This document shows positions 15,737 to 49,808 of a stretch of 52,531 bases of DNA, one piece after another (position 1 is the stretch's first letter; every line of letters begins with the position of its first letter). The position numbers were made by a program, and so were the translations under genes. Below the pieces are notes generated by a model. The model worked only from the letters and a program-made list of their open reading frames with translations. It was not told where the DNA came from and did not search any database. Origin of the DNA: Thiomonas sp. FB-6 (GTDB taxonomy: Bacteria; Pseudomonadota; Gammaproteobacteria; Burkholderiales; Burkholderiaceae_C); NCBI RefSeq assembly GCF_000377645.1, contig NZ_KB898491.1, forward strand, positions 1 to 52,531, in the 5' to 3' direction.

Positions 15737-16381
15737 ATGAACCCATTCCCACCACGCCATCCGGGGCTTGCGCCCGGCGCCGAGCCGCTGGTGGCCATCC
15801 TGCGCGGGCTGCTGCCGGACCAGGCGGCGGCCGTCGGCGCCGCGCTGTTCGAGGCCGGGTTTCGCTGCCTGGAAGTGCCGCTGAACCGGCCGCAGGCACT
15901 GCGCTGCATCGAGATCCTGGCCTCCATGGCGCCGCCGGACGCGCTGGTCGGCGGCGGCACCATGCTGAGCCCGCGCGACGTGGACGAGGTGACGTCGGCG
16001 GGCGGAAGCCTGATGGTGGCGCCGCATTGCGACCCGGAACTCATCGCCCATGCGGCCGCGCGGAGCATGTTCTGCGCCCCGGGCGTGGCCACGCCCAGCG
16101 AGGCCTTCAGCGCTCTGCGCGCCGGCGCGCACGCGCTGAAGCTGTTTCCGGCCGAGCAGATCGGCACGCGGGGCCTGAAGGCCTTGTGCACCGTGCTTCC
16201 TCCCGGCACGGCGGTGTGGCCGGTGGGTGGTGTCGACGAGGCGCAGATGGCCGAATGGGTGCGCGCCGGAGCGACCGGCTTCGGCATCGGCTCGCAGCTG
16301 TTCCGGCCGGGGCTGGAGGCGGCCGAGGTCGGCCGGCGCGGCGCGAGCATGTTGCGGGCCTGGCGCGAGGCCAGGGCGTAG
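15737..16381 (+). CDS. dgoA: 2-dehydro-3-deoxy-6-phosphogalactonate aldolase
   Basis: This 214-aa class I aldolase splits KDPGal into pyruvate and glyceraldehyde-3-phosphate. The KDPG/KDPGal aldolase fold shows Arg23 (ILRG), the catalytic Glu46 (CLEVPLN), the phosphate-binding GGGT (72-75), the Schiff-base Lys135 (ALKLFPAE) and VGGV plus FGIGSQLF near the end. LNRPQA after the Glu and pairing with dgoK favour galacto over gluco specificity. GAGGAA lies 9 nt upstream of the ATG. The gene ends 44 bp from the convergent glpK. Confidence 0.92.
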   Translation: MNPFPPRHPGLAPGAEPLVAILRGLLPDQAAAVGAALFEAGFRCLEVPLNRPQALRCIEILASMAPPDALVGGGTMLSPRDVDEVTSAGGSLMVAPHCDPELIAHAAARSMFCAPGVATPSEAFSALRAGAHALKLFPAEQIGTRGLKALCTVLPPGTAVWPVGGVDEAQMAEWVRAGATGFGIGSQLFRPGLEAAEVGRRGASMLRAWREARA

Positions 16382-16425: not shown

Positions 16426-17934
16426 TCAGCGATCCGGGGCGCTCCAGTCCAGCGAGCGTTGCACGGCCTGCTGCCAGCGCCGCAGCAGGCGCTCGCGCTC
16501 CGGTGCCGGCATCGAGGGCTCCCAGCGGCGCTGCTCCTGCCAGTGCGAGGCCAGTTCGGCGGTGTCGCGCCACAGGCCCACGGCCAGGCCGGCGGCGCAG
16601 GCCGCGCCCAGCGCGGTGGTCTCGCCGCACACCGGGCGGATCACCGGCGTGTCCAGCAGGTCCGCCTGGAATTGCATCAGCAGCGAGTTCACGCTCATGC
16701 CGCCATCGACCTTGATCTCGCGCAATTTCATGCCGCTGTCGCGTTGCATCGCCGCGACGATTTCCTGCACCTGGAAGGCCGTCGCCTCCAGCGCCGCGCG
16801 CGCGACGTGGCCGCGATGCGCGAAATGGGTCAGGCCCACCAGCACGCCGCGGGCGTCCGGGCGCCAGTGCGGTGCGAACAGGCCGGAGAAGGCGGGCACG
16901 AAATACACGTCTCCGTTGTCGGGCACGCTGCGTGCGAGTTCCTCGATCTCCGCCGCCGATCCGATCAGGCCCAGGTTGTCGCGCAGCCAGCGCACCAGCG
17001 AGCCGGTGACGGCGATCGAGCCCTCCAGCGCGTAGCACGGCGCCTGTTCGCCCAGGCGATAGGCCACCGTGCCCAGCAGGCCGCTGGCCGACGGCGTGGC
17101 CTGCTCGCCGGTGTGCATCAGCAGGAAGGATCCCGTGCCGTAGGTCACCTTGGCCTGGCCCGGCGCGAAGCAGGCCTGGCCGATCAGCGCGCCCTGCTGG
17201 TCGCCTACCAGCGCGGCCAGTTCGGCGCCGCGCAGGGCGCCTTCGCGGATGCGCCCGATGCGCTGCGAGGTCGACACCACGCGGGGCAGGCAGGCCGGGG
17301 GCACGCCCAGCGCCTCGCAGATCTCGGCGTCCCATTGCAGGCGCCGGATGTCGAACAGGTTGGTGCGGCTGGCGTTGGTCACGTCGCTGACATGCTGCCC
17401 GCCGTCGGCGCCCCCGGTGAGGTTCCACGCCAGCCAGGCGTCGATGGTGCCGAACAGCAGCTCGCCGCGCGCGGCCGCCTGCGCCGCGCCGGCGTGCTCG
17501 CGCAGCAGCCACTGCAGCTTGCAGGCCGAGAAATAGTTGGCCGGCGGCAGGCCCGTGCGCTCGCGCCAGCCCTGCGGCCCGACGCGCGCCACGATGTCGC
17601 GCACCAGCGACTCGGTGCGGCAGTCCTGCCAGACGATGGCGCGGCCCAGCGTGCGCCCGCTGGCACGTTCCCACAGCACCGCGGTCTCGCGCTGGTTGGC
17701 GATGCCCACGGCCGCCAGCTGCGAGGCCGCGATTCCCGCCTCGCGCAGCGCCTGCGCCGCCAGCTCGTGCACGTTGCGCAGGATCTCGGCGGGATCGTGC
17801 TCGACCCAGCCCGGCTGCGCGCAGATCTGCCGGTGCTCGCGCTGCGCCACGGCCACCACGCGCAGCGCGGCGTCGAACACCATGACCCGCGTGCTGGTGG
17901 TGCCCTGGTCGATGGCCGCCACAAAGCTGTTCAA
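16426..17934 (-). CDS. glpK: Glycerol kinase
   Basis: This 502-aa FGGY-family kinase makes sn-glycerol-3-phosphate. It has DQGTTSTR at 9-16, ERTG-type substrate region NQRETAVLW, ALEGSIAVTGSLVRWLR and KVDGGMSVN, as in GlpK. No ATG lies at the right place: the frame opens with TTG (17934-17932), which overlaps the glpD stop (TTGA) and is preceded by GGGAG about 8 nt upstream. The resulting N-terminus, NSFVAAIDQGTTSTR, matches the family, so I take TTG as the start. It is the last gene of the long galactoside transcript and phosphorylates the glycerol that GlpD then oxidises. Confidence 0.93.
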   Translation of the reverse strand: MNSFVAAIDQGTTSTRVMVFDAALRVVAVAQREHRQICAQPGWVEHDPAEILRNVHELAAQALREAGIAASQLAAVGIANQRETAVLWERASGRTLGRAIVWQDCRTESLVRDIVARVGPQGWRERTGLPPANYFSACKLQWLLREHAGAAQAAARGELLFGTIDAWLAWNLTGGADGGQHVSDVTNASRTNLFDIRRLQWDAEICEALGVPPACLPRVVSTSQRIGRIREGALRGAELAALVGDQQGALIGQACFAPGQAKVTYGTGSFLLMHTGEQATPSASGLLGTVAYRLGEQAPCYALEGSIAVTGSLVRWLRDNLGLIGSAAEIEELARSVPDNGDVYFVPAFSGLFAPHWRPDARGVLVGLTHFAHRGHVARAALEATAFQVQEIVAAMQRDSGMKLREIKVDGGMSVNSLLMQFQADLLDTPVIRPVCGETTALGAACAAGLAVGLWRDTAELASHWQEQRRWEPSMPAPERERLLRRWQQAVQRSLDWSAPDR

Positions 17935-19523
17935 AGGCTTGCTCCCGAATGCACGGCCGCGGGTTCGCCGCGGGCCTGGAGATCGAACCATGCGCTGACC
18001 GCCTCGCGTTGCGCGGGGCTCAGGTCCAGGCCGCATTTGCTGCGGCGCCAGAGGAAGTCCTCGCCGCTGCGCGCCCATTCCCGATGCGCAGCGTATTCCA
18101 GTTCGGCCTCGAACACCCCCGGCGCGATCTCGGCGCCGAGGTCGGCCGGGCCGGCGGCCGCGCCCAGCCAGCGATGCACGCGCGTGCCGTAGGCGCAGGC
18201 CACGCGCCGGCGCATCGCCGCGGGCATCCAGGCATGGCGCGCGCCCAGCGCCCGCTCGAAGGCTGCCAGGTCGTCGGGGCCCGGCCCGGAGCGGCCCAGC
18301 TCGGCGTACAGGTCGCCGCCCGGAAGCAGCGCATGCGCGGTCCAGGCGCCGCGCCGGCAGCCCAGGCTGCCCGCCAGGCGGTCGGCCGCCTGCTCGGCCA
18401 GCAGCCGGTAGGTGGTGATCTTGCCGCCCCAGACGTTGAGCAGCGGCGCGCCCGCGGCGTCGAGCTCGATGCGGTAGTCGCGGGTGACCGCCGAGGGATC
18501 GCCGCTGTGGTCGTCGAGCAGCGGGCGCACGCCGGAAAAGCTCCACACCACGTCCTGCGCTCCCAGGCGCAGGTCGAAATAGCGCATCACGCTCGCGCAC
18601 AGGTAGTCGGTCTCCTGCTCGCTGATGCGCGGTGCCGCGGGGTCGCCGTCGTAGACCACGTCGGTGGTGCCGATCAGCAGGTGCTCGGCGCCGTAGGGAA
18701 TGACGAACACGATGCGCCGGTCGGGGTTCTGCAGCAGCCAGGCCTGGTGCATGGGCCCCCAGCGCCGCACGACGATGTGCGAACCCTTGATCAGGCGAGG
18801 GCGCCGCGCGGCCGCGGCCCCGGCGTCTTGCGCGACGCGCCCGGCCCAGGGCCCGGCGGCGTTGACCAGGCTGCGCGCGCGCACCTGGAAGCTGCCCCGC
18901 GGGCCGTGCAGCTCGGCCAGCCAGGCGCCGGCCTCGCGGCGAAGTTCGCCCACGCGCGTGCGCGTGAGCACGCGCGCGCCGCGCTCGGCGGCATCCAGCG
19001 CGTTGAGCACGACCAGGCGCGCATCGTCCACCCAGCCGTCGGAGTAGGCGAAGCCGTGGCGCCATTGCGGACGCAGCGAGCAGCCGGCGGCCTCGGCCTG
19101 CAGATCCACCATGCGCGAGCCCGGGAGCCAGCGCCGCCGCGCCAGGTGGTCGTACAGCCACAGCCCGGCGCGCAGGGTCCACAGCGAGCGCAGGCGCGGG
19201 TCGTGGGGCACGACGAAGCGCATCGGCCCCATGATGTGCGGCGCGCTGGCCAGCAGCACCTCGCGTTCCTGCAGGGCTTTGCGCACCAGCGCGAATTCGT
19301 GGAACTCCAGGTAGCGCAGGCCGCCGTGGATGAGCTTGGTGGAGGCCGACGAGGTGTGCGCGGCCAGGTCATCCTGCTCGCTCAGCAGCACGCGCAGCCC
19401 GCGCCCCGCGAGGTCGCGCGCGATGCCGCAGCCGTTGACCCCGCCGCCCACCACCAGCACGTCCCAGGGCTCGCCGACGCCGGCGGCGCCGGCCCCGGGG
19501 CCCTGCGTCGGGAGCTGGTTCAT
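17931..19523 (-). CDS. glpD: Aerobic glycerol-3-phosphate dehydrogenase
   Basis: This 530-aa FAD-dependent, membrane-associated enzyme oxidises glycerol-3-phosphate to dihydroxyacetone phosphate and passes electrons to quinone. The dinucleotide fold is VLVVGGGVNGCGIARDLAG (from residue 22), followed by SSASTKLIHGGLRYLE (58-73), characteristic of GlpD, and by the C-terminal GlpD domain. The start overlaps the alpha-galactosidase stop (ATGA, 19520-19523) and its stop overlaps the glpK start, so the three are tightly coupled. That linkage of glycerol genes to galactosidase genes is the key clue to the operon's substrate. Confidence 0.93.
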   Translation of the reverse strand: MNQLPTQGPGAGAAGVGEPWDVLVVGGGVNGCGIARDLAGRGLRVLLSEQDDLAAHTSSASTKLIHGGLRYLEFHEFALVRKALQEREVLLASAPHIMGPMRFVVPHDPRLRSLWTLRAGLWLYDHLARRRWLPGSRMVDLQAEAAGCSLRPQWRHGFAYSDGWVDDARLVVLNALDAAERGARVLTRTRVGELRREAGAWLAELHGPRGSFQVRARSLVNAAGPWAGRVAQDAGAAAARRPRLIKGSHIVVRRWGPMHQAWLLQNPDRRIVFVIPYGAEHLLIGTTDVVYDGDPAAPRISEQETDYLCASVMRYFDLRLGAQDVVWSFSGVRPLLDDHSGDPSAVTRDYRIELDAAGAPLLNVWGGKITTYRLLAEQAADRLAGSLGCRRGAWTAHALLPGGDLYAELGRSGPGPDDLAAFERALGARHAWMPAAMRRRVACAYGTRVHRWLGAAAGPADLGAEIAPGVFEAELEYAAHREWARSGEDFLWRRSKCGLDLSPAQREAVSAWFDLQARGEPAAVHSGASL

Positions 19524-21661
19524 GCGCGCTCCATGCCGAACACCAGCGCCGCCTCGGGATGCAGCGCGGGCAGCGGCAGGCCGCATTGCGCGAGTTCGTG
19601 CCCGTCGGCCAGCACGCCGGGGCCGGCGAGGGCGTGCAGCCAGGCGCTGGACTGCTCGGCGCGCTGGCGCAGCTGCCCGGCGCGTCCGAGCAGGCGCACG
19701 CGCCAGCGGCCGCTGCCGCGCAAGGGCGGCAGGCGCAGCGCCGCGGATTGCGTGCCGGGCATGGCCTCGGGCTGGAACACGCACAGGAACTGGCGTTGCG
19801 GGGTGGAGGCCAGCCACCAGCGCGCGCCGCTGGGGCTGCGCCCCTGCGCGATCTCGCCGTCGTGGATGGTTTCCCGCCACTGCTTGTACAGCGCGATCCA
19901 GCCGGCCAGGCGCTCGCGCTCGTCGGCGCTCATCGCGCGCACGTCGGCCTCCACGCCCATGTGCCCGAAACAGGCCACCGCGCAGCGCAGGTCGATGGAT
20001 TGGGAGCGCCCGGTGGCGTGCGCCGGCGCCGGGCCCACGTGGCTGCCCAGCAGCTCGGGCGGAAACAGGCGCAGCGCGCCGGACTGGATGCCGATGCGTG
20101 AGCTGGCGTCGTTGTTGTCGCTGGTCCACAGGCGCTGCGTGTAGCGCAGGATGCCCAGGTCGGCGCGCGCCCCGCCGGAGGCGCAGCTCTCGATCTCCAC
20201 CCTCGGGTGCGCGCCGCGCAGGCGCTCCAGCAGCGCGTACAGGGCGAGCACCTGGGCATGCATGCCGGGGCGCCCCTGGGCATCCAGCGCTTGCGCGAGA
20301 TCGCGGTTCATGTCCCACTTCAGGTACGAAATCGGCGCGCCGCGCAGCAGCGCATCGAGCTTGTCGAACAGGTAGTGCGAAACCTCCGGGCGGGCCAGGT
20401 CGAGCACCAGCTGGTGGCGCCCGAACACCGGCTCGCGCCGAGGGTCGCCGAGCACCCATGCGGGGCGCTCGCGGTACAGGCGGCTTCGCGGGTTGACCAT
20501 CTCGGGCTCCACCCACAGCCCGAATTCCATGCCCAGGGAGCGTACATGTTCGGCCAGCCCGCCCAGGCCATGAGGATACTTGCGCGCATCCGGCCACCAG
20601 TCGCCCAGCGCGGCGCGGTCGTCGTCGCGCCCCTCGAACCAGCCGTCGTCGAGCACGAAGCGTTCCACGCCGAGCGCGGCCGCCTGCGAGGCCAGTTCGC
20701 GCAGCTCGCCCTCGTCGTGGCGGAAGTACAGAGCCTCCCAGGTGTTCAGGTGCACCGGACGCGGGCGCCGCCGGCCGCCCGGCCAGCGCAGCACCTCGCG
20801 CCGCGCCAGCGCGTGCAGGCCGCGCGAGGCCGAGCCGATGCCGGCCTGGCCCAGCGCCAGGTGCAGCGGCGGCACGCGCAGGCGCGCCCCGGGCGCCAGG
20901 CGCAGCTCGCCGGGGGCGAACCATTCCCCGGCCTGCAGCAGCAGGCGCCCGTCGTCGTGGCGCTCCAGCGCGAAACGGTGGTTGCCGCTCCACGCCAGCT
21001 GCGCGCCGAGCGCCGGACCCTGGTGCTCGCAGGTATGCGCGGCCAGCACGAACAGGCCCGGCGGAGCCTGGTGCGAGCTGCGCCCGCGCCGGTTCTCGCG
21101 CGACCAGCCGCTGGGGCCGACGGCCTGGCGCTCCCACTGGAATTCCTGCGCCCACTCGCCGTGCGGGTAGCAGACCTCGCCGAGTTCGGCGGGCAGCGCG
21201 ATGCTGGCCCCGGCCAGGCGGTCCACCTGCAATTCGGTGTCTCCGCGGTTGTGCAGCTCGGCCTCGACGCGCAGCACGTCGGTGGCGCCGTCCAGGCCGA
21301 GCTCGATGCGCAGGCCCAGGCCGGCGCCGAGGTCGCCGAGCTGCAGGCTCAGCGAATCGGCGGCGGGCTGCTCCCAGGACTCCACGCTCCATTCGTGGAT
21401 GGCGTCGAGCCCGTCGCGGTGGGCGCGCAGCACGCCGTCCTGCGCCAGGCCGTTGCCGTGGCCGGGGGCCAGGCGCGGCGGGCTCGGCGCATCCATGCCG
21501 CCCGGCGGCATGGACAGCAGCTCGGTGCCGGGCCAGGCGGCCAGCAGGTCCAGCGCGTCCAGGCGCGAGCCCAGGTGACGCCACAAGGCGGCGCCGCCCT
21601 GGGTGACTTCCAGCACGGCGCTGCAGGCATTGCCCTCGAGACGCAACAGACTCGCTGGCAT
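19520..21661 (-). CDS. GH36 alpha-galactosidase
   Basis: This 713-aa glycoside hydrolase has an N-terminal beta-sandwich, then the GH36 barrel with LNTWEALYF, VLDDGWFEGRDDD and WVEPEMVNP. The nucleophile is Asp450 in YLKWDMNR and the acid/base Asp lies in the TSDNNDASSRIGIQ segment; CASGGARADLG also matches the family. It removes terminal alpha-galactosyl groups. There is no signal peptide, so it acts in the cytoplasm on imported oligosaccharides or galactosyl-glycerols. It begins 4 nt after the permease stop and overlaps glpD at its end. Confidence 0.92.
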   Translation of the reverse strand: MPASLLRLEGNACSAVLEVTQGGAALWRHLGSRLDALDLLAAWPGTELLSMPPGGMDAPSPPRLAPGHGNGLAQDGVLRAHRDGLDAIHEWSVESWEQPAADSLSLQLGDLGAGLGLRIELGLDGATDVLRVEAELHNRGDTELQVDRLAGASIALPAELGEVCYPHGEWAQEFQWERQAVGPSGWSRENRRGRSSHQAPPGLFVLAAHTCEHQGPALGAQLAWSGNHRFALERHDDGRLLLQAGEWFAPGELRLAPGARLRVPPLHLALGQAGIGSASRGLHALARREVLRWPGGRRRPRPVHLNTWEALYFRHDEGELRELASQAAALGVERFVLDDGWFEGRDDDRAALGDWWPDARKYPHGLGGLAEHVRSLGMEFGLWVEPEMVNPRSRLYRERPAWVLGDPRREPVFGRHQLVLDLARPEVSHYLFDKLDALLRGAPISYLKWDMNRDLAQALDAQGRPGMHAQVLALYALLERLRGAHPRVEIESCASGGARADLGILRYTQRLWTSDNNDASSRIGIQSGALRLFPPELLGSHVGPAPAHATGRSQSIDLRCAVACFGHMGVEADVRAMSADERERLAGWIALYKQWRETIHDGEIAQGRSPSGARWWLASTPQRQFLCVFQPEAMPGTQSAALRLPPLRGSGRWRVRLLGRAGQLRQRAEQSSAWLHALAGPGVLADGHELAQCGLPLPALHPEAALVFGMERA

Positions 21662-21665
21662 GGCG

Positions 21666-22517
21666 TCAACCCTTGGTGGCGCCGAGGGTCAGCCCGGCGA
21701 TGAAATGGCGCTGCATGGCGAAGAACATCACCACCGGGGGCAGCGCGGCGAGGATGGAACCGGCGGCGACCAGTTGCCACTGCGAGATCCACTGGCCGTT
21801 GAGGGACATGAGCCCGCCGGTCACGGGCATGGCGTGGCTGCCCTGGGTGAGCACCGTGGCCCAGAAATAATCGTTCCAGACGAAGGTGAAGATCAGCACC
21901 GCCAGCGCGGCCATCGCGGGGCGGATCAGCGGCAGCACGATGCGCAGGAAGATGCGCAGCTCGCCGGCGCCCTCGATGCGCGCGGCCTCGATCAGCTCGC
22001 GCGGCAGATCGCGGATGAAATTGCGCAGGAAGAAGGTGCAGAAGCCGCTCTGGAAGGCGGTGTGGAACAGGGTCAGCCCCAGCGTGCTGTTGTACAGCCC
22101 CAGGTGCAGCGAGAGCTGGCGTACCGGAACCATGAGGATCTGCGCCGGCACGAAGTTGCCGCCGACGAACAGGAAGAACACGGCCAGGTTGGCGCGGAAG
22201 CGGTACACGCCGAGGGCGTAGCCGGCCAGGCTGGCCAGCGCGATGGATCCGGCCACCGCGGGCACCGTGACCTCGAAGCTGTTGAGGATGTAGCGCAGCA
22301 GCGGGGTGTTGCGGAACACCTGCACGTAGTTGCTCACGCCGGCCCAGGAGGAGGGCAGGCCCCAGTAGTTGCCCGAATTCATGTCGGCCGGCGTGCGCAC
22401 CGACATCATGGCCACCGCCAGGATGGGCAGCAGCCACACCAGCAGCAGCAGCGGAATGCCCACGCGGTAGGCCGTGCGCGTCAGCGGACGCGTCTGTTCG
22501 ATCGGGGTCGGGAACAT
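21666..22517 (-). CDS. Sugar ABC transporter permease (MalG type)
   Basis: This 283-aa inner-membrane permease has about six hydrophobic segments and the EAA loop ELIEAARIEGAGELRIFLRI contacting the ATPase. The end HFIAGLTLGATKG is typical of MalG/UgpE-type partners. The start ATG shares one base with the stop of the partner permease (TGATG). It forms the channel with the gene at 22517-23434 and is energised by the ATPase at 26795-27949. The substrate is most likely a galactoside, from the enzymes on the same transcript. Confidence 0.9.
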   Translation of the reverse strand: MFPTPIEQTRPLTRTAYRVGIPLLLLVWLLPILAVAMMSVRTPADMNSGNYWGLPSSWAGVSNYVQVFRNTPLLRYILNSFEVTVPAVAGSIALASLAGYALGVYRFRANLAVFFLFVGGNFVPAQILMVPVRQLSLHLGLYNSTLGLTLFHTAFQSGFCTFFLRNFIRDLPRELIEAARIEGAGELRIFLRIVLPLIRPAMAALAVLIFTFVWNDYFWATVLTQGSHAMPVTGGLMSLNGQWISQWQLVAAGSILAALPPVVMFFAMQRHFIAGLTLGATKG

Positions 22518-23434
22518 CAGGCGTTCTCCTTTTCCTGCAGGTACACGCGGCGCAGCACGAACACGATGAACACCAGCATGATGAAGAACAGCACGGTTGC
22601 GACGGCGGCGCCGTAGCCCATGCGGTAGCCGTACTCGCTGAGCGCGACCTCGTACATGTAATAGGCCAGGGTGCGCGAACTGCCGTAGGGGCCGCCCTGG
22701 GTCATGATGGAGATCATGTCGAAACTGCGCAGCGAGCCGATCACCGTGACCACCACCGCGATGAAGGTGGCCGGACGCAGCTGCGGCAGCACCACCCTGG
22801 ACAGCATGGACCAGCCCTTGGCCCCCTCCAGCCGGGCGGCCTCGATGAGGTCGGCGCGCACGCCGTTGAGCCCGGTGAGGTACAGGATCATGCAATAGGC
22901 GATCTGCGGGTACAGCCCGGCGGCGACGATGCCGTAGGTGACCAGGTGCGAGTTCGACAGCACCGCCACCGGAGGCAGTCCCAGGGCATGCAGCAGGTGC
23001 ACGAACAGCCCCGAGGTGGGGTCGTAGAACAGCGTGAACACCAGGCCGATGACCACCTGGGAGATCACGAAAGGAAAGAAGAAGGCCGACTTCATCAGGC
23101 GCAAGCCGGCCATGGTCTGATTGAGCAGCAGGGCCAGCGCCAGGCCGATGGGTACCGACAGCAGGTAGCCGAACAGCCAGATCAGGTTGTTGCGCAGCGC
23201 GGTCAGGAAGGCCGGGTCCGAGCCCAGGCGCAGGTAGTTGGCCAGCCCCACCCAGCGCGCGGTGCCCAGCCCGTCCCACTTGTACAGGCTCAGCCCCATG
23301 GACTCGACGATGGGCCCGAGCACGTAGACCGTGAACAGGAACAGGCCCGGGGCCAGGAACAGCCAGGGAGCGAGGGACATGTGGTGCCTCGCCCACCAGG
23401 ATCGGCGGGGCGGCGTGCGCGCGGGAGAGGACAT
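22517..23434 (-). CDS. Sugar ABC transporter permease (MalF type)
   Basis: This 305-aa inner-membrane permease has a short cytoplasmic N-terminus, about six membrane segments beginning APWLFLAPGLFLFTVYVLGP, and the EAA loop DLIEAARLEGAKGWSMLSR. It lies 80 bp after the binding-protein gene, with a strong hairpin in that gap, and overlaps the next permease by one base. An internal Met at residue 19 is an alternative start, but the first ATG keeps the basic N-terminal extension usual for MalF-type subunits. Confidence 0.9.
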   Translation of the reverse strand: MSSPARTPPRRSWWARHHMSLAPWLFLAPGLFLFTVYVLGPIVESMGLSLYKWDGLGTARWVGLANYLRLGSDPAFLTALRNNLIWLFGYLLSVPIGLALALLLNQTMAGLRLMKSAFFFPFVISQVVIGLVFTLFYDPTSGLFVHLLHALGLPPVAVLSNSHLVTYGIVAAGLYPQIAYCMILYLTGLNGVRADLIEAARLEGAKGWSMLSRVVLPQLRPATFIAVVVTVIGSLRSFDMISIMTQGGPYGSSRTLAYYMYEVALSEYGYRMGYGAAVATVLFFIMLVFIVFVLRRVYLQEKENA

Positions 23435-23454
23435 GGCGGAATCGGCGGCGGCTG

Positions 23455-23483
23455 CCGCGCGCCGGCTTCGGGCCGGCGCGCGG
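23455..23483 (-). other. Strong intercistronic stem-loop after the binding-protein gene
   Basis: A perfect 12-bp GC stem (23455-23466 with 23472-23483) closes a TTCGG loop. It sits between the binding-protein stop and the permease start in the same operon and has no following U-tract. Such structures usually protect the upstream message from 3' exonucleases or let only part of the transcription through, giving more binding protein than permease. Comparable elements occur at 33409-33446 and 50706-50731. Confidence 0.6.
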
Positions 23484-23514
23484 ACGGGGGCTGACGGGCC
23501 CGGGGGCCCTGCGG

Positions 23515-24753
23515 TTACTGGCTGTAGACCTGCTTCTCCACCTCGTCGAGGTGCTTCAGGATGTCCTGGCGCTGGGACGGATCCATCAGATAGTGCTGGA
23601 AGCCGTCCAGGCCGGCCTTGGCCATCTGCGCGGGCGCGTCGCGGTCATAGAACTGCGACAGGTCCTTGGCGTTGGACAGCAGCTTGAAGCCGGCCTGCAG
23701 GAAGGGATCGTCCGGCAGCTTGGCGTTCTTGTTGGTCGGCAGCTGTCCGAGGATCGCGTTCATCTTCGACTGCACCTCCGGGCGCGCCAGGTAGGCCAGG
23801 AATTTCTCGGCGTCGGCCTTGTGCTTGGCATGCGCGGGGATGAACACGATGTCGGTGGGCGCCTCCTCGGCGTCGGGCACCTTCGGGTCGATCACCGGGA
23901 AGGGCACGAAGCCGATCTGCGACTCCTTCAGCCCGGCCGACTTCATCACGTCCACCGCGAAATTGCCCATCAGGTACATCGCCGCCTGGCCCTTGACGAA
24001 CAGCGGTACCGCTTCCTGCCAGGCGTAGGACGCGCTGTTGGGAATGAAGTAGCCGGGCTTGGTCAGCTGGTCCCAGTAGTCGAACACCTTCTCCACGCGC
24101 GGATCGGTATAGGGCACCTTGCCCGCCATGAGCTGCATGTGGAAGGCGTAGCCGTTGACCCGCAGGTCGAGGTAGTCGAACCAGCCGGCCGCCGGCCACG
24201 GGGCCTTGGTGCCGATGGCGAAGGGGGTGATGCCGTGGGACTTCAGCGTGGCGCAGTCGGCCAGCAACTCCTTCCAGGTCTTGGGCGGCTGGATGCCCAG
24301 CTTGTGGAACAGGTCCTTGCGGTAGTAGATGCCCCACTGGTAGTAGGTCAGCGGCAGGCCCCACTTGCGGCCGTTGAGGGTCATCGACGACGCGGAGGAG
24401 GCGAAGGCCTGGTTCCAGCCGTCCTTGTTCCACAGCGGGGTCACGTCGGTGAACAGCCCGTCCTTGACGAAGGGGGCCATGCGGTTGGCCGCGTACCAGG
24501 TGGCCAGGTCCGGCGGATCGGCGGACAGGAAGTTGAAGATGGCGCTCTTGTAGCCCTCGTGGTCGAAGGTGTTCACCTTCACGTGGATGTTGGGGTAGGC
24601 GGCCTCGAAGCCCTTCACGCCGGCGGCGATGGCCGCCTTCGGTCCGGGGTCGGAGTAGTCGGTGTTGAACACCAGTTCGTCGGCGTGCGCTGCGGCTGCG
24701 GCGGCGCCCAGAAGCGCGGCGCCGAGCACCAGCTTGCGGGACAGGCGTGGCAT
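23515..24753 (-). CDS. Sugar ABC transporter substrate-binding protein (extracellular family 1)
   Basis: This 412-aa periplasmic binding protein has a signal peptide (KLVLGAALLGAAAAAAHA, cleavage near residue 24), then the family-1 fold with YRKDLFHKLGIQPPKTWKEL and the hinge segment FVKGQAAMYLMGNFAVDVM. It delivers the solute to the two permeases that follow. Aromatic residues around WYAANRM and LPLTYYQWGIYY suit a sugar-binding cleft. It lies 25 bp after the GH42 gene. The bound sugar cannot be read from sequence; galactosyl-glycerol or a galacto-oligosaccharide fits the operon. Confidence 0.92.
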   Translation of the reverse strand: MPRLSRKLVLGAALLGAAAAAAHADELVFNTDYSDPGPKAAIAAGVKGFEAAYPNIHVKVNTFDHEGYKSAIFNFLSADPPDLATWYAANRMAPFVKDGLFTDVTPLWNKDGWNQAFASSASSMTLNGRKWGLPLTYYQWGIYYRKDLFHKLGIQPPKTWKELLADCATLKSHGITPFAIGTKAPWPAAGWFDYLDLRVNGYAFHMQLMAGKVPYTDPRVEKVFDYWDQLTKPGYFIPNSASYAWQEAVPLFVKGQAAMYLMGNFAVDVMKSAGLKESQIGFVPFPVIDPKVPDAEEAPTDIVFIPAHAKHKADAEKFLAYLARPEVQSKMNAILGQLPTNKNAKLPDDPFLQAGFKLLSNAKDLSQFYDRDAPAQMAKAGLDGFQHYLMDPSQRQDILKHLDEVEKQVYSQ

Positions 24754-24778
24754 GTTGTCGTCTCCTCGTGAGTCTTGG

Positions 24779-26767
24779 TCAATGTGCGGAAGCAGCTGGG
24801 AGCAGCTTCCATACGGATAGGCCCCGGGGGGGCAGTTCCAGCGCGCCCAGCAGGCGCGTGGCCTCGCCTTGCGGTGGCTCCCAGCGCACCGGCGAATCGG
24901 AGAAGTTCAGGGCCAGCGCCAGCTCGCCGACGCGGCTGATGCGCAGTCCCTCGGGCAGGCGTTGCAGGCCCAGTCCAGCGGCCGGCGCCAGGTGTTCGAT
25001 CAGCGCCAGCCAGCCGGCCTGGTCGAGCCAGGCGGCCAGGTACCAGCAGTCGTCCTTGCGGGTCAGCGCGGCGGAGCCGTCGGCGAAGCGCGCCTGCGCC
25101 TGCGCGCCGCGCAGCGCCAACTGCTCGCACCAGCGCGACGCCCGCAGCGTGGGGCCGTCGTCGCCCAGGCGCAGCGGCAATTCCACGCCCGGCGGCAGCG
25201 AGCTCACCCGCTGCACCTGCACGCCGGCGAGTTCGGCGAAGGCACCGGGCGCCAGGCCGGCAGGAATGTGCAGTTCTTCCGTCTTGGAGCCCGCGCGGGG
25301 CCCCAGCAGCACCTGCGCGCCGCTGCGCCGCAGCGCCTCGGCCAGCGCGGCCTCGCCGCGCAGCTGCGCCGGCAGCAGCACCAGCGCGTAGCCTTGCAGT
25401 TCGGCGCCGGGGGGCAGCAGGTCCACGTCCAGGCCCCACTGGCGCAGCGCGGCGTAGGCACGAAAGCAGGCCTCCAGCGCCAGGTAGTCGCGGCCCTGGG
25501 GCTGGATGTCGGCCATCCACAGGCTGGCGTAGTCGAACACCAGCGCCACCGGGGCCTGCCGGCGCTGGCGCGCCGCGCGCAGCGGCTCGCGCAGGGCGTC
25601 GAGCTCGCGCGCGACCTGGGCGACCTCCAGCGCGCCCAGGTCGTCGCTGCCGTCGGGGCGTTGCAGCCCCGCGTGCATCTGCTCCTGCGCGTAGGGGGCC
25701 TGGCGCCAGCGGAAGTAGCTGATCACCTCGGCGCCGTGGGCCAGGGCCTGCCAGCTCCACAATCGCACCATGCCGGGATGCGGGGCGGGGTTCCACTGCG
25801 CCCAGTTCACCGGTCCCGGCTGCTGCTCCATGACCCACCAGCGTCCCTGGCACATGCCGCGGTACAGATCGTGGTGGAAGGCGGGAATGTCGGGGTGTCC
25901 GGTGAAGGCGTGGCGCTGCTTCTCGTGCGCGTCGAGGAAGAAGTTCTGCGTGGCGCCCAGGGGGTAGGAATCCCAGGCGGCCACGTCCAGGTCGCGCGCC
26001 AGGCGGTGGTGGTCGAACTCGGTGAAAAACCCCATGAAGTTGTGCAGCACGTCGCGGCCCGGCGAGTGCCTGCGCAGGATGTCCACCTGCATGCGGTTGA
26101 ACTCGGCCACCTCGTCGGAGGCGAAGCGCCGCCAGTCGAGGCGATGCGAGGGGTTGGCCTCGGTCACCGTGCCGGCGGGGGGATCCACCTGCGCGAAGTC
26201 GGTGTATTCCTGGCTCCAGAACACCGTGCCCCAGGCCTGGTTGAGGGCTTCGATGGTGCCGTAGCGCTGCTGCAGCCACGCGCGGAAACGCTCGCGTGCC
26301 GCGGCGGAGTAGCTCAGCACGGTCGAGTGGCAGCCGTATTCGTTGTCGGTCTGCCAGGCGCACACGGCCTCGTGGCTGCCGTAGCGCTCGGCCATCAGCG
26401 TGACGATACGTGCGGCCTGCGCCCGGTATTGCGGGCTGGAGAAGCAGTAGTGGCGCCGCGAGCCGAAGCCGCGCGCATGTCCGTGCTCGTCCAGCGCCAG
26501 GATGTCCGGATGCGCATCGACCAGCCATTTGGGAGGGGTGGCGGTGGGCGTTCCCAGCACCACGCGCAGTTCGTGCCGGTGCAGGGTGTCGAGGGCCTGG
26601 TCCAGCCAGTCCCAGCACAACTCGCCGCTACGCGGCTCGATGCGGCTCCAGGCGAATTCGCCGATGCGCACCACGCGCAGCCCGAGTTCGCGCATGTGGC
26701 GAGCGTCGCGCTCCCACAACTCCCGCGGCCATTGCTCGGGGTAATAGCACACGCCCAGTTCGATCAT
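24779..26767 (-). CDS. GH42 beta-galactosidase
   Basis: This 662-aa glycoside hydrolase family 42 enzyme begins [14 protein letters not shown]. The acid/base is Glu143 in WQTDNEYG and the nucleophile Glu314 in [20 protein letters not shown] and the trimerisation and C-terminal beta domains follow. No signal peptide is seen, so it acts inside the cell. GH42 enzymes hydrolyse small beta-galactosides rather than lactose preferentially. Placement between the ATPase and the binding-protein genes ties it to the imported substrate, and with the GH36 enzyme it can remove both alpha- and beta-linked galactose. Confidence 0.93.
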
Positions 26768-26794
26768 GCTCAGGCTCTCCGGTGCGCGCGGCGC

Positions 26795-27949
<1,155 letters not shown>

Positions 27950-28007
27950 GATCGGTACGGGTGGGCCCGGGCGACGAGGCCGCCGGGGCGGAAGGAAGAG
28001 GGCGCGA

Positions 28008-29738
28008 TCAGTGGGATTCGCGGGGCACCGCGTCGCCGCGGCAGCCGGTGAGAAAGTCCAGGTCGGCGCCCAGGTCGGCCTGCTGCACATGGCGCACGTA
28101 CAGGCGCACGTAGCCCGAGTCGGGCAGCGGCGGCGGGCTCCAGGCGGCGCGCCTGCGCTGCAGCTCGGCCTCCTCCACGAGCAGCTGCAGGCGCCGCGCG
28201 CCGACGTCGAGCTCGATCAGGTCGCCGTCGCGCACCAGCGCCAGCGGTCCGCCGGCGGCGGCCTCCGGCGCGGTGTGCAGCACCACGGTGCCGAAGGCGG
28301 TGCCGCTCATGCGCGCGTCGGAAATGCGCACCATGTCGGTCACGCCCTGGCGCAGCAGCTTGGGCGGCAGGCCCATGTTGCCCACCTCGGCCATGCCGGG
28401 GTAGCCGCGCGGGCCGCAGTTCTTCAGCACCAGCACCGAGCCGGCGTCCACGTCCAGCTCGGGGTCGGCGATGCGTGCCTTGTAGTCCTCGATCGACTCG
28501 AACACCACCGCCCGCCCGGTGTGGCGCAGCAGGCCGGGCGTGGCGGCGGAAGGCTTGAGCACCGCGCCGTCGGGCGCCAGGTTGCCGCGCAGCACCGCGA
28601 GGCCCCCCTGGTCGACCAGCGGATCGGACAGCGGGCGGATCACCTGATCGTCGTCGCACTGGGCCTGCATCACGTGGTCGGCCAGCACGCCGCCGGCGAC
28701 GCTGGGCGCGCGGCCGTGCAGCAGCCCGGCCTCGAGCAGGCGCCGCAGCACCACCGGCAGGCCTCCGGCGTAGTAGAAGTCCTCCATCAGGAAACGCCCC
28801 GAAGGCATCAGGTCGACGATGGTCGGCACGTCGCGCCCGAGGCGGTCCCAGTCGTCCAGGCTCAGCGGCACGCCCACGCGTCCGGCGATGGCCAGCAGGT
28901 GGATCACCGCGTTGGTCGAGCCGCCGATGGCGCCGCACACGCGGATGGCGTTCTCGAAGGCTTCGCGGGTCAGCACCTGGGAGGGCCGAAGGTCCTCGCG
29001 CACCAATTCGACGATGCGCCGCCCGGCGCGCTGAGCCAGGTCGGCGCGCCGCGCGTCGACGGCGGGAATCGCCGCGTTGCCGGGCAGGGCGATGCCCATG
29101 GCCTCGACCAGGCAGGCCATGGTCGAGGCCGTGCCCATGGTCATGCACACGCCGCTGGAGCGGGACATGCAGCGCTCGGCCTGCATGAACTCCTGCTCGC
29201 TCATGGTGCCGGCGGCGACCGCCTCGGCGAATTTCCACACGTGGGTGCCCGAGCCGATGGCCTGGCCGCGGAAACGCCCGTTGAGCATGGCGCCCCCCGA
29301 GACCACGATGGTCGGCAGGTTCACGCTGGCCGCGCCCATCAGCGTGGCCGGGGTGGTCTTGTCGCAGCCGGCCAGCAGCACCACGCCGTCCAGCGGGTGG
29401 GCGCGGATGGCTTCCTCCACGTCCATGCTGGCCAGGTTGCGGAACAGCATGGCCGTCGGGCGCATCAGGGTCTCGCCCAGCGAGCTGACCGGGAATTCCA
29501 GCGGCAGCCCGCCGGCCTGCAGCACCCCGTGGCGTACCCGCTCGGCCAGATCCCGGAAGTGGTGGTTGCAGGGGGTCAGGTCGCTCCAGGTGTTGCAGAT
29601 GCCGATCACCGGGCGGCCGTCGAAGCTGTCGTCGGGCAGGCCCTCGCTTTTCATCCAGCTGCGGTGGATGAAGTTGTCCTTGCTGCGGCCCTCGAACCAG
29701 GCCTGGGAACGTCGCTTCTTCGGCGGGGATGACGACAT
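28008..29738 (-). CDS. IlvD/Edd-family sugar-acid dehydratase (L-arabonate/D-galactonate type)
   Basis: This 576-aa Fe-S dehydratase removes water from an aldonate to give a 2-keto-3-deoxy acid. Cluster ligands are Cys57 (LTPCN), Cys125 (AGCDKTTP) and Cys198 (SGVCMTMGTASTM), with the metal-site Lys127. The opening RSQAWFEGRSKDNFIHRSWM and GICNTWSDLTPCN are typical of the pentonate/hexonate branch (arabonate, xylonate), not branched-chain amino acid IlvD. L-arabonate and D-galactonate share the relevant stereochemistry, so with dgoK/dgoA nearby, D-galactonate is a good candidate substrate. It is the first metabolic gene after the AraC regulator and heads the galactoside transcript. Confidence 0.85.
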   Translation of the reverse strand: MSSSPPKKRRSQAWFEGRSKDNFIHRSWMKSEGLPDDSFDGRPVIGICNTWSDLTPCNHHFRDLAERVRHGVLQAGGLPLEFPVSSLGETLMRPTAMLFRNLASMDVEEAIRAHPLDGVVLLAGCDKTTPATLMGAASVNLPTIVVSGGAMLNGRFRGQAIGSGTHVWKFAEAVAAGTMSEQEFMQAERCMSRSSGVCMTMGTASTMACLVEAMGIALPGNAAIPAVDARRADLAQRAGRRIVELVREDLRPSQVLTREAFENAIRVCGAIGGSTNAVIHLLAIAGRVGVPLSLDDWDRLGRDVPTIVDLMPSGRFLMEDFYYAGGLPVVLRRLLEAGLLHGRAPSVAGGVLADHVMQAQCDDDQVIRPLSDPLVDQGGLAVLRGNLAPDGAVLKPSAATPGLLRHTGRAVVFESIEDYKARIADPELDVDAGSVLVLKNCGPRGYPGMAEVGNMGLPPKLLRQGVTDMVRISDARMSGTAFGTVVLHTAPEAAAGGPLALVRDGDLIELDVGARRLQLLVEEAELQRRRAAWSPPPLPDSGYVRLYVRHVQQADLGADLDFLTGCRGDAVPRESH

Positions 29739-29859: not shown

Positions 29860-30849
29860 TCAATCCCCCGCGGGTGCGGGGATGGCGCGGCGGCGTGCGG
29901 CGCGGCGCAGCGAAGGAGGGCGCCGGTCGAGTCGCCCGGCGTCGCGCGGCGGGGCCGCGGCTTCGGGGCCCGGGCCCTGGGCGAACTGGCGCCGGTAGGC
30001 GCTGGGCGTGGTCTGGCGCGCGGCCTTGAACTGGCGATTGAAATGCGCGAGGTTGCCGAAGCCGCAGCGCGCGGCCACCTCGGACACCGGCAGGCGCGTG
30101 TCGGCCAGCAGGCGGCAGGCGCGGCCGATGCGCAGGCGCGTGAGGTGCTGCACCACGCTTTCCCCCAGGTGTTGCAGGAAGTAGCGCTGCAGGCTGCGCG
30201 GGGACCAGTGCGCGGCCGCGCAGAGGTCGGCCAGGCGCAGCGGCTCGGCCAGGCGCGATTCCATCAGCGCCAGCACGCGGTTGATGCGCTCGGGTTCGTG
30301 CCCCGTGGCGGCGCCGGCGGCCCCGGCGGGGCCGGCGAAGGCGGCGGGCGAGGCCAGCGCCTGCGCCGGGGCATCGGCCAGGCGGCACAGCAGATCGAGG
30401 GTAGCCGCCAGGCGACGGCGCGGCTCGGCCGCGAGCAGTTCGGGCAGTTGCTCGCGCATGGCCTGCGCTTGCGCCGCGGGAAAGCACAGGCCGCAGGTGC
30501 CGCGGCGCAGCAGGCGATGCAGGGGCTCGTACTCGGGGCAGCAGTCGGCCAGGCGCCGCGCCCAGGCGCCGTCGAACCACACCACGATCGCCACCTGCGG
30601 CTGGGCCGCATCGGCGGAGCGGTTGGAGGCCCAGGTGTGCGCGAGATCCGGCGGAACCAGCACCAGGTCGTCGGCGCCGTACTCGGCCACCGAATCCCCG
30701 ATGTAGCGCTTGCCGTGGCTGTTGAGGGTCAGCGTGAGTTCGTACTCGGGGTGGTGGTGCCACTCGAAGGGAATGCGAGGCAGGCGCCGGTGGTAGATGC
30801 GCACCGAGCCATGCGCGCCGAAATCCACATGCTCATAAGCGGGCTTCAT
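29860..30849 (-). CDS. AraC-family transcriptional regulator
   Basis: This 329-aa regulator has an N-terminal cupin-like sensing domain ([17 protein letters not shown], residues 28-44) and a C-terminal pair of helix-turn-helix motifs (about 185-290: [38 protein letters not shown]). A disordered Arg/Pro-rich tail of about 38 residues follows the DNA-binding domain. It lies 121 bp upstream of the dehydratase on the same strand and is divergent from the YbiU-like gene, so it may activate the galactoside operon, its divergent neighbour, or both. Confidence 0.87.
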
Positions 30850-30955
30850 GGCGGAATCCGCAGCAACAATGGCGGGATCCTATCACTTGGCCGGGCTTCG
30901 CGAACCTATGCTGCGCCCATCGCCGGAACACACATTCCAATTCCTGGAGACGAGC

Positions 30956-32230
30956 ATGGCCGCACTGCAGATCGATGACCTCCCCGCAACCATCCGCGCC
31001 GTCAAGGCGCGTCTGCGCGAGCAGCTTCCCGACTACGCCCGGGTGTACGCGCAGCTCGAAGCCGACATGCGCGCGCAGGCGGCGGAGATCGCCGAGCTGC
31101 GCGGCCGCGGCCTGCCGGTGATTCCCGAGATCGCCTACGCCGACATCGCCGAAGGCCGGGTGAGCGAGGCGCAGGCCCAGCTGGTGCGCAGGCGCGGCGC
31201 CTGCGTGATCCGGCGCGTGTTCGAGCCGGCGCGGGCCCGGGCCTGGGACTCCGAGATCGCCGACTACGTCCAGCGCAACGACCTCGACGCGCGCCTGGCC
31301 CACCGCGCCGAGGACAAGTATTTCGGCCAGCTGGCGTCGAGCAAGCCGCAGATCTACGGCGTGTACTGGTCGCGCCCGCAGGTGCTTGCGCGCCAGTCGC
31401 CCGAGCTCGGCGCCACCCGCGTGTTCCTCAACCGCCTGTGGCGCAGCCACAGCGAGGGCCGCCAGCATTTCGACCCCGAGCGCGTGCCGGCCTACGCCGA
31501 CCGGCTGCGCCGGCGCCCGCCGGGCTCGGATTCCCTCGGGCTGTCGCCGCATTGCGACGGCGGCTCGGTGGAGCGCTGGATCGACGACAACTTCCGCAGG
31601 GTCTACCGCCACGTGTTCGACGGGAGCTGGCAGCGCTACGACCCCTTCGACGCCGCGTGGCGCCCGGAGGTGCGCGAGGTGGCGTCGCCGGCGGTGTGTT
31701 CCATGTTCCGCACCTTCCAGGGCTGGACCGCGCTGACCCGCCAGGGCCCCGGCGACGGCACGCTGCAGCTGGTGCCCATCGCCAATTCCATGGCCTACAT
31801 CCTGATGCGCGCGCTGCAGGACGACGTGGCCGACGACGACCTGTGCGGCGCGCTGCCCGGGCGCGCGCTGTCCATCGCCCCGCGCTGGCACGCGCCGCTG
31901 TTCGACGCGCTGTCGTCGATTCCGCTGATGGAGCCGGGCGACGCGGTGTTCTGGCACTGCGACCTGATCCACGCGGTGGAGGACGCGCACCGCGGAACCG
32001 GCTACAGCAACGTCATGTACATCGCCGCCACGCCGGGCTGCGCCAAGAACGACGAGTACCTGCGGCGCCAGCTGCCGGCCTTCCTCGAGGGACGCAGCCC
32101 GCCGGATTTCCCGGCCGACGACTTCGAGACCGACTTCGTGGGGCGCGCCGGAGCGGACATGCTCAGCCCGCTGGGCCGCGAGCAACTCGGGCTCGACGCG
32201 CAGGCCGGGGAGACCGCCAGGAGGGCATGA
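30956..32230 (+). CDS. YbiU/DUF1479-family Fe(II)/2-oxoglutarate oxygenase-like protein
   Basis: This 424-aa protein matches E. coli YbiU in length (421). The cupin core shows [12 protein letters not shown] (the HxD iron pair) and later [12 protein letters not shown] with a following Arg, consistent with Fe(II) and 2-oxoglutarate binding. The biological substrate is not known to me. ATG 30956 was chosen because upstream codons in the frame lie in the divergent promoter region; TGGAGA lies 6 nt upstream. It sits between an AraC regulator and an Frc-type transporter, hinting at sugar or sugar-acid metabolism. Confidence 0.8.
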
Positions 32231-32269
32231 CATTCGGGTTTGTCCCGTGCGGGTTTTCCATTTGTACAT

Positions 32270-32290
32270 CGCATTGATTTATTTAATGCG
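32270..32290. promoter_or_regulatory. Candidate operator upstream of the Frc-type transporter
   Basis: CGCATT-N9-AATGCG is a perfect 6-bp inverted repeat in the AT-rich part of the 177-bp gap upstream of the binding-protein gene. The spacer and flanks include TTATTT, reminiscent of ROK (NagC/Mlc) boxes, and a ROK regulator is encoded in this operon. No clear -10 was identified. Confidence 0.4.
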
Positions 32291-32407
32291 GGGGGCAACA
32301 ATGGCGCCGTTCCCGGATGCGGCCACGAGCGTGTCCGGGAGCAGCGACGCCAGTGCCGGCATTCTCGGCACGCCATTCCATAAGCCCTGAGCACGAGGAG
32401 ACGAACC

Positions 32408-33403: not shown

Positions 33404-33408
33404 GCTGG

Positions 33409-33446
33409 CTGGCCCGGGGCCGGGGGCAACCCGGCCCCGGGGCCAG
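33409..33446 (+). other. Very strong intercistronic stem-loop after frcB
   Basis: A perfect 12-bp stem (33413-33424 with 33430-33441) closes a 5-nt loop, and four more pairs continue below a one-base bulge. No U-tract follows and the permease gene continues in the same direction, so this is better read as an mRNA-stabilising or partial-termination element that raises binding-protein output than as an operon end. Confidence 0.65.
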
Positions 33447-33500
33447 GCCGACCCGATCCATCATCCGGCGCCGCCTGCGCGCCGTGCGGAGACCACCGCC

Positions 33501-34472: not shown

Positions 34473-34503
34473 GATCATGAACGCACGCATGCAGGAGACT
34501 TCC

Positions 34504-35316
<813 letters not shown>

Positions 35317-35329
35317 GCCCATCCCTGCC

Positions 35330-37050: not shown

Positions 37051-37083
37051 AGCCCGCGTTCCGTTTCGAGATCCACCGTACCG

Positions 37084-44551: not shown

Positions 44552-44555
44552 CGCG

Positions 44556-45470: not shown

Positions 45471-45509
45471 CGCGGCTCTCGCAGATCGTCCTTCGCCCCC
45501 GCGGGGCCT

Positions 45510-46358: not shown

Positions 46359-46408
46359 GCGCTCTCCTGCGGGACTTTCGGGGCTGTCGGGGCCGTGGGG
46401 CTTGCGGA

Positions 46409-47860: not shown

Positions 47861-47877
47861 GGGGGCTCTCCCGGCGC

Positions 47878-48909
<1,032 letters not shown>

Positions 48910-48980
48910 GCTCGCGTCTCCAGACGATTCCGGGCCGGGCCCGGGTTCTCGCGGCCCCGTCGCCGGAGCCTTGGAAGGAT

Positions 48981-49802: not shown

Positions 49803-49808
49803 GGTGCT

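What the first reader, a model, noticed from the sequence alone, without database searches (positions are those of the whole stretch)
16426..29738. A probable operon for galactosyl-glycerol (galactolipid head-group or floridoside) catabolism
One minus-strand run with overlaps or very short gaps encodes an ABC importer, a GH42 beta-galactosidase, a GH36 alpha-galactosidase, GlpD and GlpK, headed by a sugar-acid dehydratase. GH36, glpD and glpK are linked by 4-nt stop/start overlaps. Glycerol genes have no reason to be fused to galactosidase genes unless the substrate yields both sugars. Digalactosylglycerol (alpha-galactosyl on beta-galactosyl-glycerol, from thylakoid DGDG) would need exactly alpha-galactosidase, then beta-galactosidase, glycerol kinase and glycerol-3-phosphate dehydrogenase; floridoside would need a subset. 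The galactose would enter the dgoK/dgoA route next door. I know of no described operon with this full set, though I could not search.
Basis: partly seen in the sequence, partly recalled or inferred. Interest (0 to 1): 0.85.

Follow-up and report, generated by a model that had tools for sequence, protein, structure and literature searches.

The report
Probable operon for eating galactosylglycerols
This bacterial gene set looks built to import small galactose-glycerol molecules, such as the heads of the main lipids of chloroplast membranes, cut them into galactose and glycerol and burn both parts; the arrangement is real and recurs in unrelated bacteria, but the actual food molecule has not been tested.

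Summary
The gene run is real: IlvD-type dehydratase, MalK-type ATPase, GH42, binding protein (SBP), two permeases, GH36, GlpD, GlpK, with dgoA/dgoK convergent. GH36/glpD and glpD/glpK overlap by 4 nt. Of 8 congener genomes with GH36, five keep the whole order. GlpD and GlpK are the genome's only copies at E<=1e-60; no MIP channel was found.

Outside the genus the SBP-permease set with alpha- and beta-galactosidase is widespread (39 of 60 proteobacterial SBP loci have both), but glpD is near it in only 2 of 60. One (L226) is an 11-gene operon ending GH42-glpD-glpK whose GlpD has another origin. GH36 loci with other transporters also carry glpD above chance (6 of 78; about 0.3-0.5 expected). In Caulobacter RHG1 the operon is GH42-esterase-symporter-glpD-glpK beside GH36 and a TonB receptor, which points to galactolipids. 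The SBP's nearest solved relative is AcbH, a beta-D-galactopyranose receptor.

Best reading: import and full use of mono- and digalactosylglycerol from galactolipids (0.6). Against: glp linkage is rare among orthologues, and sole-copy glp genes also serve general glycerol metabolism. Nothing was assayed. New variant of a known kind.

The parts
29860..30849 (-). AraC-family regulator, upstream on the same strand, 121 nt from the dehydratase; likely regulator (inferred)
   Evidence: Pfam HTH_18/AraC_binding; kept in L011-L015 at 86-88%, no hit in L016
28008..29738 (-). IlvD/Edd-family aldonate dehydratase (L-arabinonate dehydratase-like); candidate D-galactonate dehydratase
   Evidence: NF004784 926.7 bits; NF009559 862 bits, just under its cutoff 882; nearest solved 5j83/9evv
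26795..27949 (-). MalK-type ABC ATPase (start inferred)
   Evidence: ABC_tran, OB_MalK, TOBE_2; NF008233/NF008653 below their cutoffs
24779..26767 (-). GH42 beta-galactosidase; no room for a signal peptide (domain starts at residue 7)
   Evidence: PF02449 507.9 bits; 1kwg and 6y2k nearest
23515..24753 (-). family-1 solute-binding protein, AcbH-like galactoside receptor
   Evidence: PF01547; AcbH best by sequence and fold; loop comparison
22517..23434 (-). ABC permease A
   Evidence: PF00528
21666..22517 (-). ABC permease B (start inferred at the TGATG junction)
   Evidence: PF00528; junction
19520..21661 (-). GH36 alpha-galactosidase (AgaA/AgaB type), no signal peptide evident
   Evidence: PF02065 374 bits, PF16875; 4fnr/4fnq nearest
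17931..19523 (-). GlpD, FAD glycerol-3-phosphate dehydrogenase; 4-nt overlap with GH36
   Evidence: NF008899 above cutoff; only copy at E<=1e-60
16426..17934 (-). GlpK glycerol kinase; 4-nt overlap with glpD if it starts at TTG
   Evidence: TIGR01311 above cutoff; only copy at E<=1e-60
15737..16381 (+). dgoA, KDPGal aldolase (convergent)
   Evidence: PF01081
14716..15681 (+). dgoK, 2-keto-3-deoxygalactonokinase
   Evidence: PF05035 256.6 bits
13928..14740 (-). GntR/FCD regulator next to dgoK
   Evidence: PF07729, PF00392; synteny kept in congeners

Best explanation
A catabolic operon for galactosylglycerols, most likely the mono- and digalactosylglycerol left when galactolipids (MGDG/DGDG) are deacylated. 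An AcbH-like receptor with an ABC importer takes them up intact. Cytoplasmic GH36 removes the terminal alpha-galactose and GH42 cuts beta-galactose from glycerol. Glycerol goes through GlpK and GlpD to DHAP. Galactose is oxidised to galactonate (by dehydrogenase and lactonase, candidates elsewhere in this genome, in the operon in congener G001), dehydrated by the IlvD-type enzyme, phosphorylated by DgoK and split by DgoA into pyruvate and glyceraldehyde-3-phosphate. Shown: gene content, order, conservation, sole-copy status, independent recurrence. Inferred: the substrate, receptor specificity, the dehydratase's substrate, regulation, cytoplasmic location.
For: Whole order with glpDK in 5 of 8 congener genomes that have GH36. 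G001 (L016) adds an SDR sugar dehydrogenase and an SMP-30 lactonase between GH36 and glpD. L226: SBP-permA-permB-GH36-SDR-dgoK-dgoA-SMP30-GH42-glpD-glpK on one strand, glpD 3 nt after GH42, glpK overlapping glpD by 4 nt; its GlpD and the window clade's as one clade is rejected, p-AU 2.8e-50. GH36 loci outside the genus: glpD in 6 of 78 against 0.25-0.49 expected, P 3e-7 to 1.3e-5; as four lineages P 1e-4 to 1.6e-3. Caulobacter RHG1: GH42-esterase with signal-peptide-like start-symporter-glpD-glpK, divergent GH36, TonB receptor. The only GlpD hit at E<=1e-50 lies within about 10 kb of the galactosidase genes in 6 of 8 genomes tested. No MIP channel in G000. alpha- plus beta-galactosidase in 39 of 60 non-genus proteobacterial SBP loci. 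AcbH is the nearest solved structure and is described as a beta-D-galactopyranose/galactose receptor (passages).
Against: glpD is near only 2, and glpK near only 1, of 60 non-genus proteobacterial SBP loci. Sole-copy glp genes must also serve general glycerol metabolism. 14 of 60 SBP loci have beta- but no alpha-galactosidase, one of them beside a galactan endo-galactanase. Lack of an MIP channel is common in the genus (13 of 18 genomes), so it is not diagnostic. No lipase was seen among the window ORFs scanned, and the genome was not searched for the esterase. No dehydratase was hit in the L226 stretch. AcbH was described as galactose-binding; galactosylglycerol binding is not mentioned in the passages I read. 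A pocket for beta-galactose need not accept a 6-substituted digalactosylglycerol.
Confidence: 0.6

Rival explanations
1. A general alpha/beta-galactoside operon (melibiose, raffinose, galactobiose, lactose) beside which the housekeeping glpD-glpK pair landed; operon-like packing without a shared substrate.
For: 58 of 60 non-genus proteobacterial SBP loci lack glpD. glpD-glpK are sole copies here and native to the genus by tree. Congeners without GH36 (G005, G013, G016) keep glpD-glpK in another place.
Against: Separate glpDK-galactosidase fusions in L226 and Caulobacter RHG1, a 4-nt GH36-glpD overlap in Erythrobacter L057 if glpD starts at that ATG, and the enrichment of glpD in GH36 loci need repeated coincidence.
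Confidence: 0.25
2. A floridoside/isofloridoside (alpha-galactosylglycerol) operon: GH36 then GlpK/GlpD, with GH42 serving another sugar.
For: A characterised GH36 enzyme makes isofloridoside from galactose and glycerol by reverse hydrolysis (PMC8509150, passages), so GH36 can act on this bond. One orthologous locus is in a bacterium from the red alga Grateloupia.
Against: A beta-galactosidase is found in 53 of 60 non-genus proteobacterial SBP loci, and 14 of 60 have beta- but no alpha-galactosidase. AcbH prefers the beta anomer. The Caulobacter loci carry an esterase, which floridoside would not need.
Confidence: 0.1
3. The substrate is a glycerophospho-galactoside or a galactosyl-glycerol unit of bacterial glycolipid or teichoic-acid type, not a plant or algal galactolipid.
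For: Would also yield galactose and glycerol or glycerol-3-phosphate; the habitat of the window genome is unknown to me.
Against: No phosphodiesterase or phosphatase was identified among the operon genes, and a kinase is present, which glycerol-3-phosphate would not need.
Confidence: 0.05

Closest known systems
AcbH / GalHFG (AcbHFG) of Actinoplanes sp. SE50/110
   Same: Nearest solved relative of the SBP by sequence (204 bits) and fold (TM 0.80-0.84 by query length, 30-31% identity). The two ligand-site loops named in PMC8233162 are largely kept (YSDxxPKAA and DH).
   Different: AcbH is reported to bind beta-D-galactopyranose/galactose; it lies by the acarbose cluster, and no galactosylglycerol role is mentioned in the passages I read.
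Oxidative (De Ley-Doudoroff) galactoside loci of Rhodobacterales and rhizobia (e.g. Ruegeria TM1040, Paracoccus Arc7-R13)
   Same: Orthologous SBP, permeases and GH36, plus dgoK/dgoA, lactonase, dehydrogenase and beta-galactosidase.
   Different: No glpD/glpK hit nearby; IclR regulators; dgoD or IlvD dehydratase; some have GH2 or GH4 enzymes.
Classical glp regulon (glpFKD, GlpR) (recalled)
   Same: GlpK and GlpD.
   Different: No glpF or glpR in the operon; no MIP channel found in the genome; genes fused to galactosidases.
Egel's proposal that E. coli lac serves galactosylglycerols from galactolipids (1979, 1988; seen only as cited in PMC8333865)
   Same: Same proposed nutrient.
   Different: lac has no alpha-galactosidase or glycerol genes (recalled); ABC import and the oxidative galactose route here.
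Alteromonas macleodii TonB receptor MASE_00935, predicted substrate 'Galactolipids' (PMC7190382, Table 1, passages)
   Same: TonB receptor beside an alpha-galactosidase, as in the Caulobacter loci.
   Different: Prediction from gene neighbourhood only; the passages mention no GH42-esterase-symporter-glpDK operon and no ABC system for it.

Membership tests
AcbH-type galactose/galactoside receptor | Closest to AcbH among solved SBPs, with the AcbH ligand-site loops | tested here: met
   loop positions from the legend quoted
AcbH-type galactose/galactoside receptor | Binds beta-D-galactopyranose | not testable with these tools
   No binding assay
GH36 alpha-galactosidase | Melibiase and GH36 N-terminal domains; KWDMN and SDN motifs (motif roles recalled) | tested here: met
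   domains; motifs in the alignments
GH42 beta-galactosidase | Catalytic and trimerisation domains over the full length | tested here: met
De Ley-Doudoroff galactose pathway | Aldonate dehydratase, DgoK and DgoA present | tested here: met
   (dehydratase substrate inferred)
De Ley-Doudoroff galactose pathway | Galactose dehydrogenase and lactonase present | tested here: inconclusive
   Not in the window operon; candidates at G000:C24 (SDR 48%, SMP30 31-35%); in the operon in G001
Classical glpFKD regulon | GlpF facilitator with GlpK/GlpD | tested here: not met
   No PF00230 match in G000; control rang in 8 of 14 genomes
Galactosylglycerol catabolic operon (proposed) | alpha-gal, beta-gal, GlpK, GlpD and importer in one operon | tested here: met
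   independently in L226
Galactosylglycerol catabolic operon (proposed) | Importer and enzymes act on galactosylglycerols | not testable with these tools
   Needs biochemistry

The most novel reading that the evidence does not exclude
A widespread, unrecognised bacterial pathway for galactolipid head groups exists in at least two transport forms: an AcbH-type ABC form (this window, L226, Rhodobacterales, rhizobia) and a TonB receptor-esterase-sodium symporter form (Caulobacter and relatives). AcbH-type receptors, AcbH included, are galactosylglycerol receptors, and glycerol catabolism has repeatedly been fused into the pathway.
Probability: 0.35. Interest if true: 0.8.

Novelty: new variant of a known kind. 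Interest (0 to 1): 0.6.

Why it matters
Galactolipids are the main lipids of chloroplast membranes and among the most abundant membrane lipids on Earth (recalled). In ten full-text searches (one of them on AcbH, three with longer lists than shown) I saw no described bacterial operon that takes in the galactosylglycerol head and uses both halves. If right, it names a carbon route from dying leaves and algae into bacteria, proposes a physiological ligand for the AcbH receptor family, and makes Egel's old idea testable in a purpose-built system.

Tried and rejected
Floridoside as sole substrate: rejected as best reading because a beta-galactosidase is at least as constant as an alpha-galactosidase. 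Glp as a general feature of the system: rejected, 2 of 60. Sphingomonas L027/L030: glpK and glpD lie about 7-9 kb from GH36 in no shared operon; kept in the count but not used as fusion evidence. L080's 34% GlpD-like hit fell under the 36% identity floor. The Gfo/Idh galactose dehydrogenase has no match in G000 at E<=1e-10, but no positive control was run. Relatives of L226: only 6 genomes in its order, the SBP in 1, itself. A first clade test (p-AU 1e-4) also held L016 away from its neighbours and was confounded; one search repeats it without L016. The Poisson test treats loci as independent, and one of its three densities (0.35 per Mb) is assumed; one search's genomes were chosen because most have glpD near a galactosidase.

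Limits of the counts. The GH36 set is the best 80 of 588 relatives in a capped scan. The SBP set mixes genome samples, plasmid hits that I chose to open, and GH36- or GH42-selected loci, so its fractions are not unbiased rates. L018 and L062 repeat L016 and L013 and were left out. An earlier tally (53 loci) left out seven opened plasmid loci (L197-L203) and, by mistake, L147; one search puts them back: 61 loci, of which one (L203, Nonomuraea) is not proteobacterial and is left out of the 60. L147 is also missing from the SBP tree. One SBP hit (G443) was not fetched. The SBP tree is a quick one with long branches.
Full report
The observation. GlpD and GlpK pass the curated NCBIfam cutoffs. GH36 and GH42 are full-length; GH42 begins within its catalytic domain and neither has an obvious signal peptide, so both are probably cytoplasmic (inference). 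Junctions were read directly: GH36/glpD share ATGA and glpD/glpK share TTGA. dgoA and dgoK are convergent on the plus strand.

Conservation in the genus. GH36 matched in 8 of 27 other genomes of the genus, in the own genome, and in 0 of 32 genomes from outside the genus. Of those 8, five have the whole operon with glpD and glpK (L011-L015). One (G004, L006) is a contig fragment with permB-GH36-glpD; its glpK is on another contig. One (G001, L016) has glpD but no glpK at the locus, with an SDR dehydrogenase and SMP-30 lactonase between GH36 and glpD. One (G017, L017) has GH36 with a different transporter and no glp. In the window genome, glpD and glpK are single at E<=1e-60, and no MIP channel was found at 99.7% completeness; 5 of the 18 genus genomes searched have one. 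Since non-carriers also lack it, this only fits the idea.

The wider family. The SBP matched in 31 of 398 Pseudomonadota genomes, own included, at E<=1e-60 and in 115 plasmid records at E<=1e-50. Fifteen plasmid regions were opened; one was unannotated, and eight have GH36 (one of them by tblastn only). The fullest loci read SBP, two permeases, GH36, dehydratase, galactose dehydrogenase, dgoK, dgoA, lactonase, beta-galactosidase. In the recount, over 60 proteobacterial SBP loci outside the genus, 36 have GH36 and 7 have GH4 instead (GH4 named by Pfam in L144 and L155; the rest by tblastn). 53 have a GH42 or GH2 beta-galactosidase. 39 have alpha plus beta, 14 beta only, 4 alpha only, 3 neither. 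glpD is in 2 (L213, L226) and glpK in 1 (L226). All 11 more distant loci (SBP 30-33%, mostly Actinobacteria) have GH36 and 8 have a beta-galactosidase; none has glpD. So the conserved theme is galactosides, usually with both linkages, and glp is an add-on.

Recurrence of the glp link. A search of 385 Alphaproteobacteria with a Caulobacter GH42 gave 24 genomes. Their 24 stretches include L226, an 11-gene single-strand operon with GH42, glpD and glpK at its end, though without a dehydratase hit; and L213, where glpD and genes for a second ABC system lie some 6-7 kb from the galactoside operon on the other strand. That is 2 of 24 against 0.08-0.15 expected, P 0.003-0.011. GlpD of L226 held with the window clade is rejected (p-AU 2.8e-50), and the window's GlpD is native to its genus; L226's long branch is a caution. 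In GH36 loci, 6 of 78 outside the genus have glpD (L027, L030, L036, L041, L055, L057), with 0.25 to 0.49 expected from densities of 0.18 and 0.24 per Mb and an assumed 0.35. At E<=1e-50 the single GlpD hit of the genome is the one near the galactosidases in 6 of 8 genomes tested (G764, G688, G451, G452, G453, G801); in G454 the hit lies on another contig and G802 had none.

The galactolipid clue. In Caulobacter RHG1 (L041) GH42 is followed by a serine hydrolase (Pfam Hydrolase_4/PAF-AH/PETase-like) whose start looks like a signal peptide, an SSS symporter, glpD and glpK on one strand, with GH36 divergent and a TonB receptor beyond. L036 has the same set with glpD-glpK inverted beyond the receptor. 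Esterase relatives lie at GH36 or GH42 loci in L042 (a partial hit), L053, L088, L208, L209 and L210, without glp there. Its nearest solved structures are weak matches (5yae, PAF-AH), so activity on galactolipids is inferred.

The receptor. The nearest solved protein is AcbH by sequence and by fold of an AlphaFold2 model with mean pLDDT 83.6. Papers I read in passages call AcbH a beta-D-galactopyranose-binding protein (PMC8233162) with high affinity to galactose (PMC3364876; PMC7682106); the original paper was not held. Two loops at its ligand site are largely kept in GH36-linked SBPs and not in the beta-only SBPs L133, L158, L161. AcbH falls with 11 GH36-linked SBPs in the tree, and glp-linked SBPs fall in three separate places.

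Prior ideas. Egel's galactosylglycerol proposal for lac is cited in PMC8333865 (passages). A TonB receptor of Alteromonas was predicted for galactolipids (PMC7190382, passages). A GH36 enzyme makes isofloridoside (PMC8509150, passages). Ten full-text searches showed no described operon of this content; the library lacks most subscription papers, and some lists were longer than shown.

Verdict. Observation confirmed. Galactosylglycerol catabolism is the best single explanation (0.6), with digalactosylglycerol/monogalactosylglycerol ahead of floridoside. The strongest counter-evidence is the rarity of glp at orthologous loci.

Noticed in passing
window 43085-52060 (-): A second carbohydrate cluster: FGGY kinase, AraC regulator, SDR, mannitol-dehydrogenase family protein, a family-1 SBP and at least one ABC permease, probably for polyols.
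   Followed up: partly
window 30848-38145 (+): Divergent cluster: DUF1479/Gig2-like protein, ribose-type ABC genes (SBP, permease, short ATPase), FucU/RbsD-like mutarotase, ROK regulator, YghZ-like aldo-keto reductase. In congener L016 the AKR lies just upstream of the dehydratase on the same strand.
   Followed up: partly
L196 (G000:C24:6001-26000): A second sugar-acid cluster in the same genome: IlvD-like paralogue (69% to the window's), SDR, SMP-30 lactonase and ribose-type ABC genes; candidate supplier of galactose dehydrogenase and lactonase.
   Followed up: partly
L144:6151-7494, L155:12383-14014; also L143, L146, L157, L202, L223: A GH4 enzyme occurs in place of GH36 at otherwise similar galactoside loci, a likely non-orthologous replacement.
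   Followed up: partly
L200 (Burkholderia ambifaria CF3 plasmid): Related SBP and permeases with beta-galactosidase, sugar efflux transporter and arabinogalactan endo-beta-1,4-galactanase, suggesting a galactan-derived substrate in that branch.
   Followed up: no
L213:1-5062: glpD followed by two ATPase genes and two permeases, like a rhizobial-type glycerol ABC operon (recalled), close to a galactoside operon.
   Followed up: no
L134 (Sulfitobacter S190 plasmid) 16688-17541: dgoK annotated as two short separate pieces, so the gene may be decaying there; described only.
   Followed up: no
L036, L041, L042, L088, L208, L209: Recurring GH42/GH36 loci with a PAF-AH/PETase-like esterase and sodium:solute symporter, with a TonB receptor hit in 4 of these 6: a possible galactolipid utilisation locus in its own right.
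   Followed up: partly
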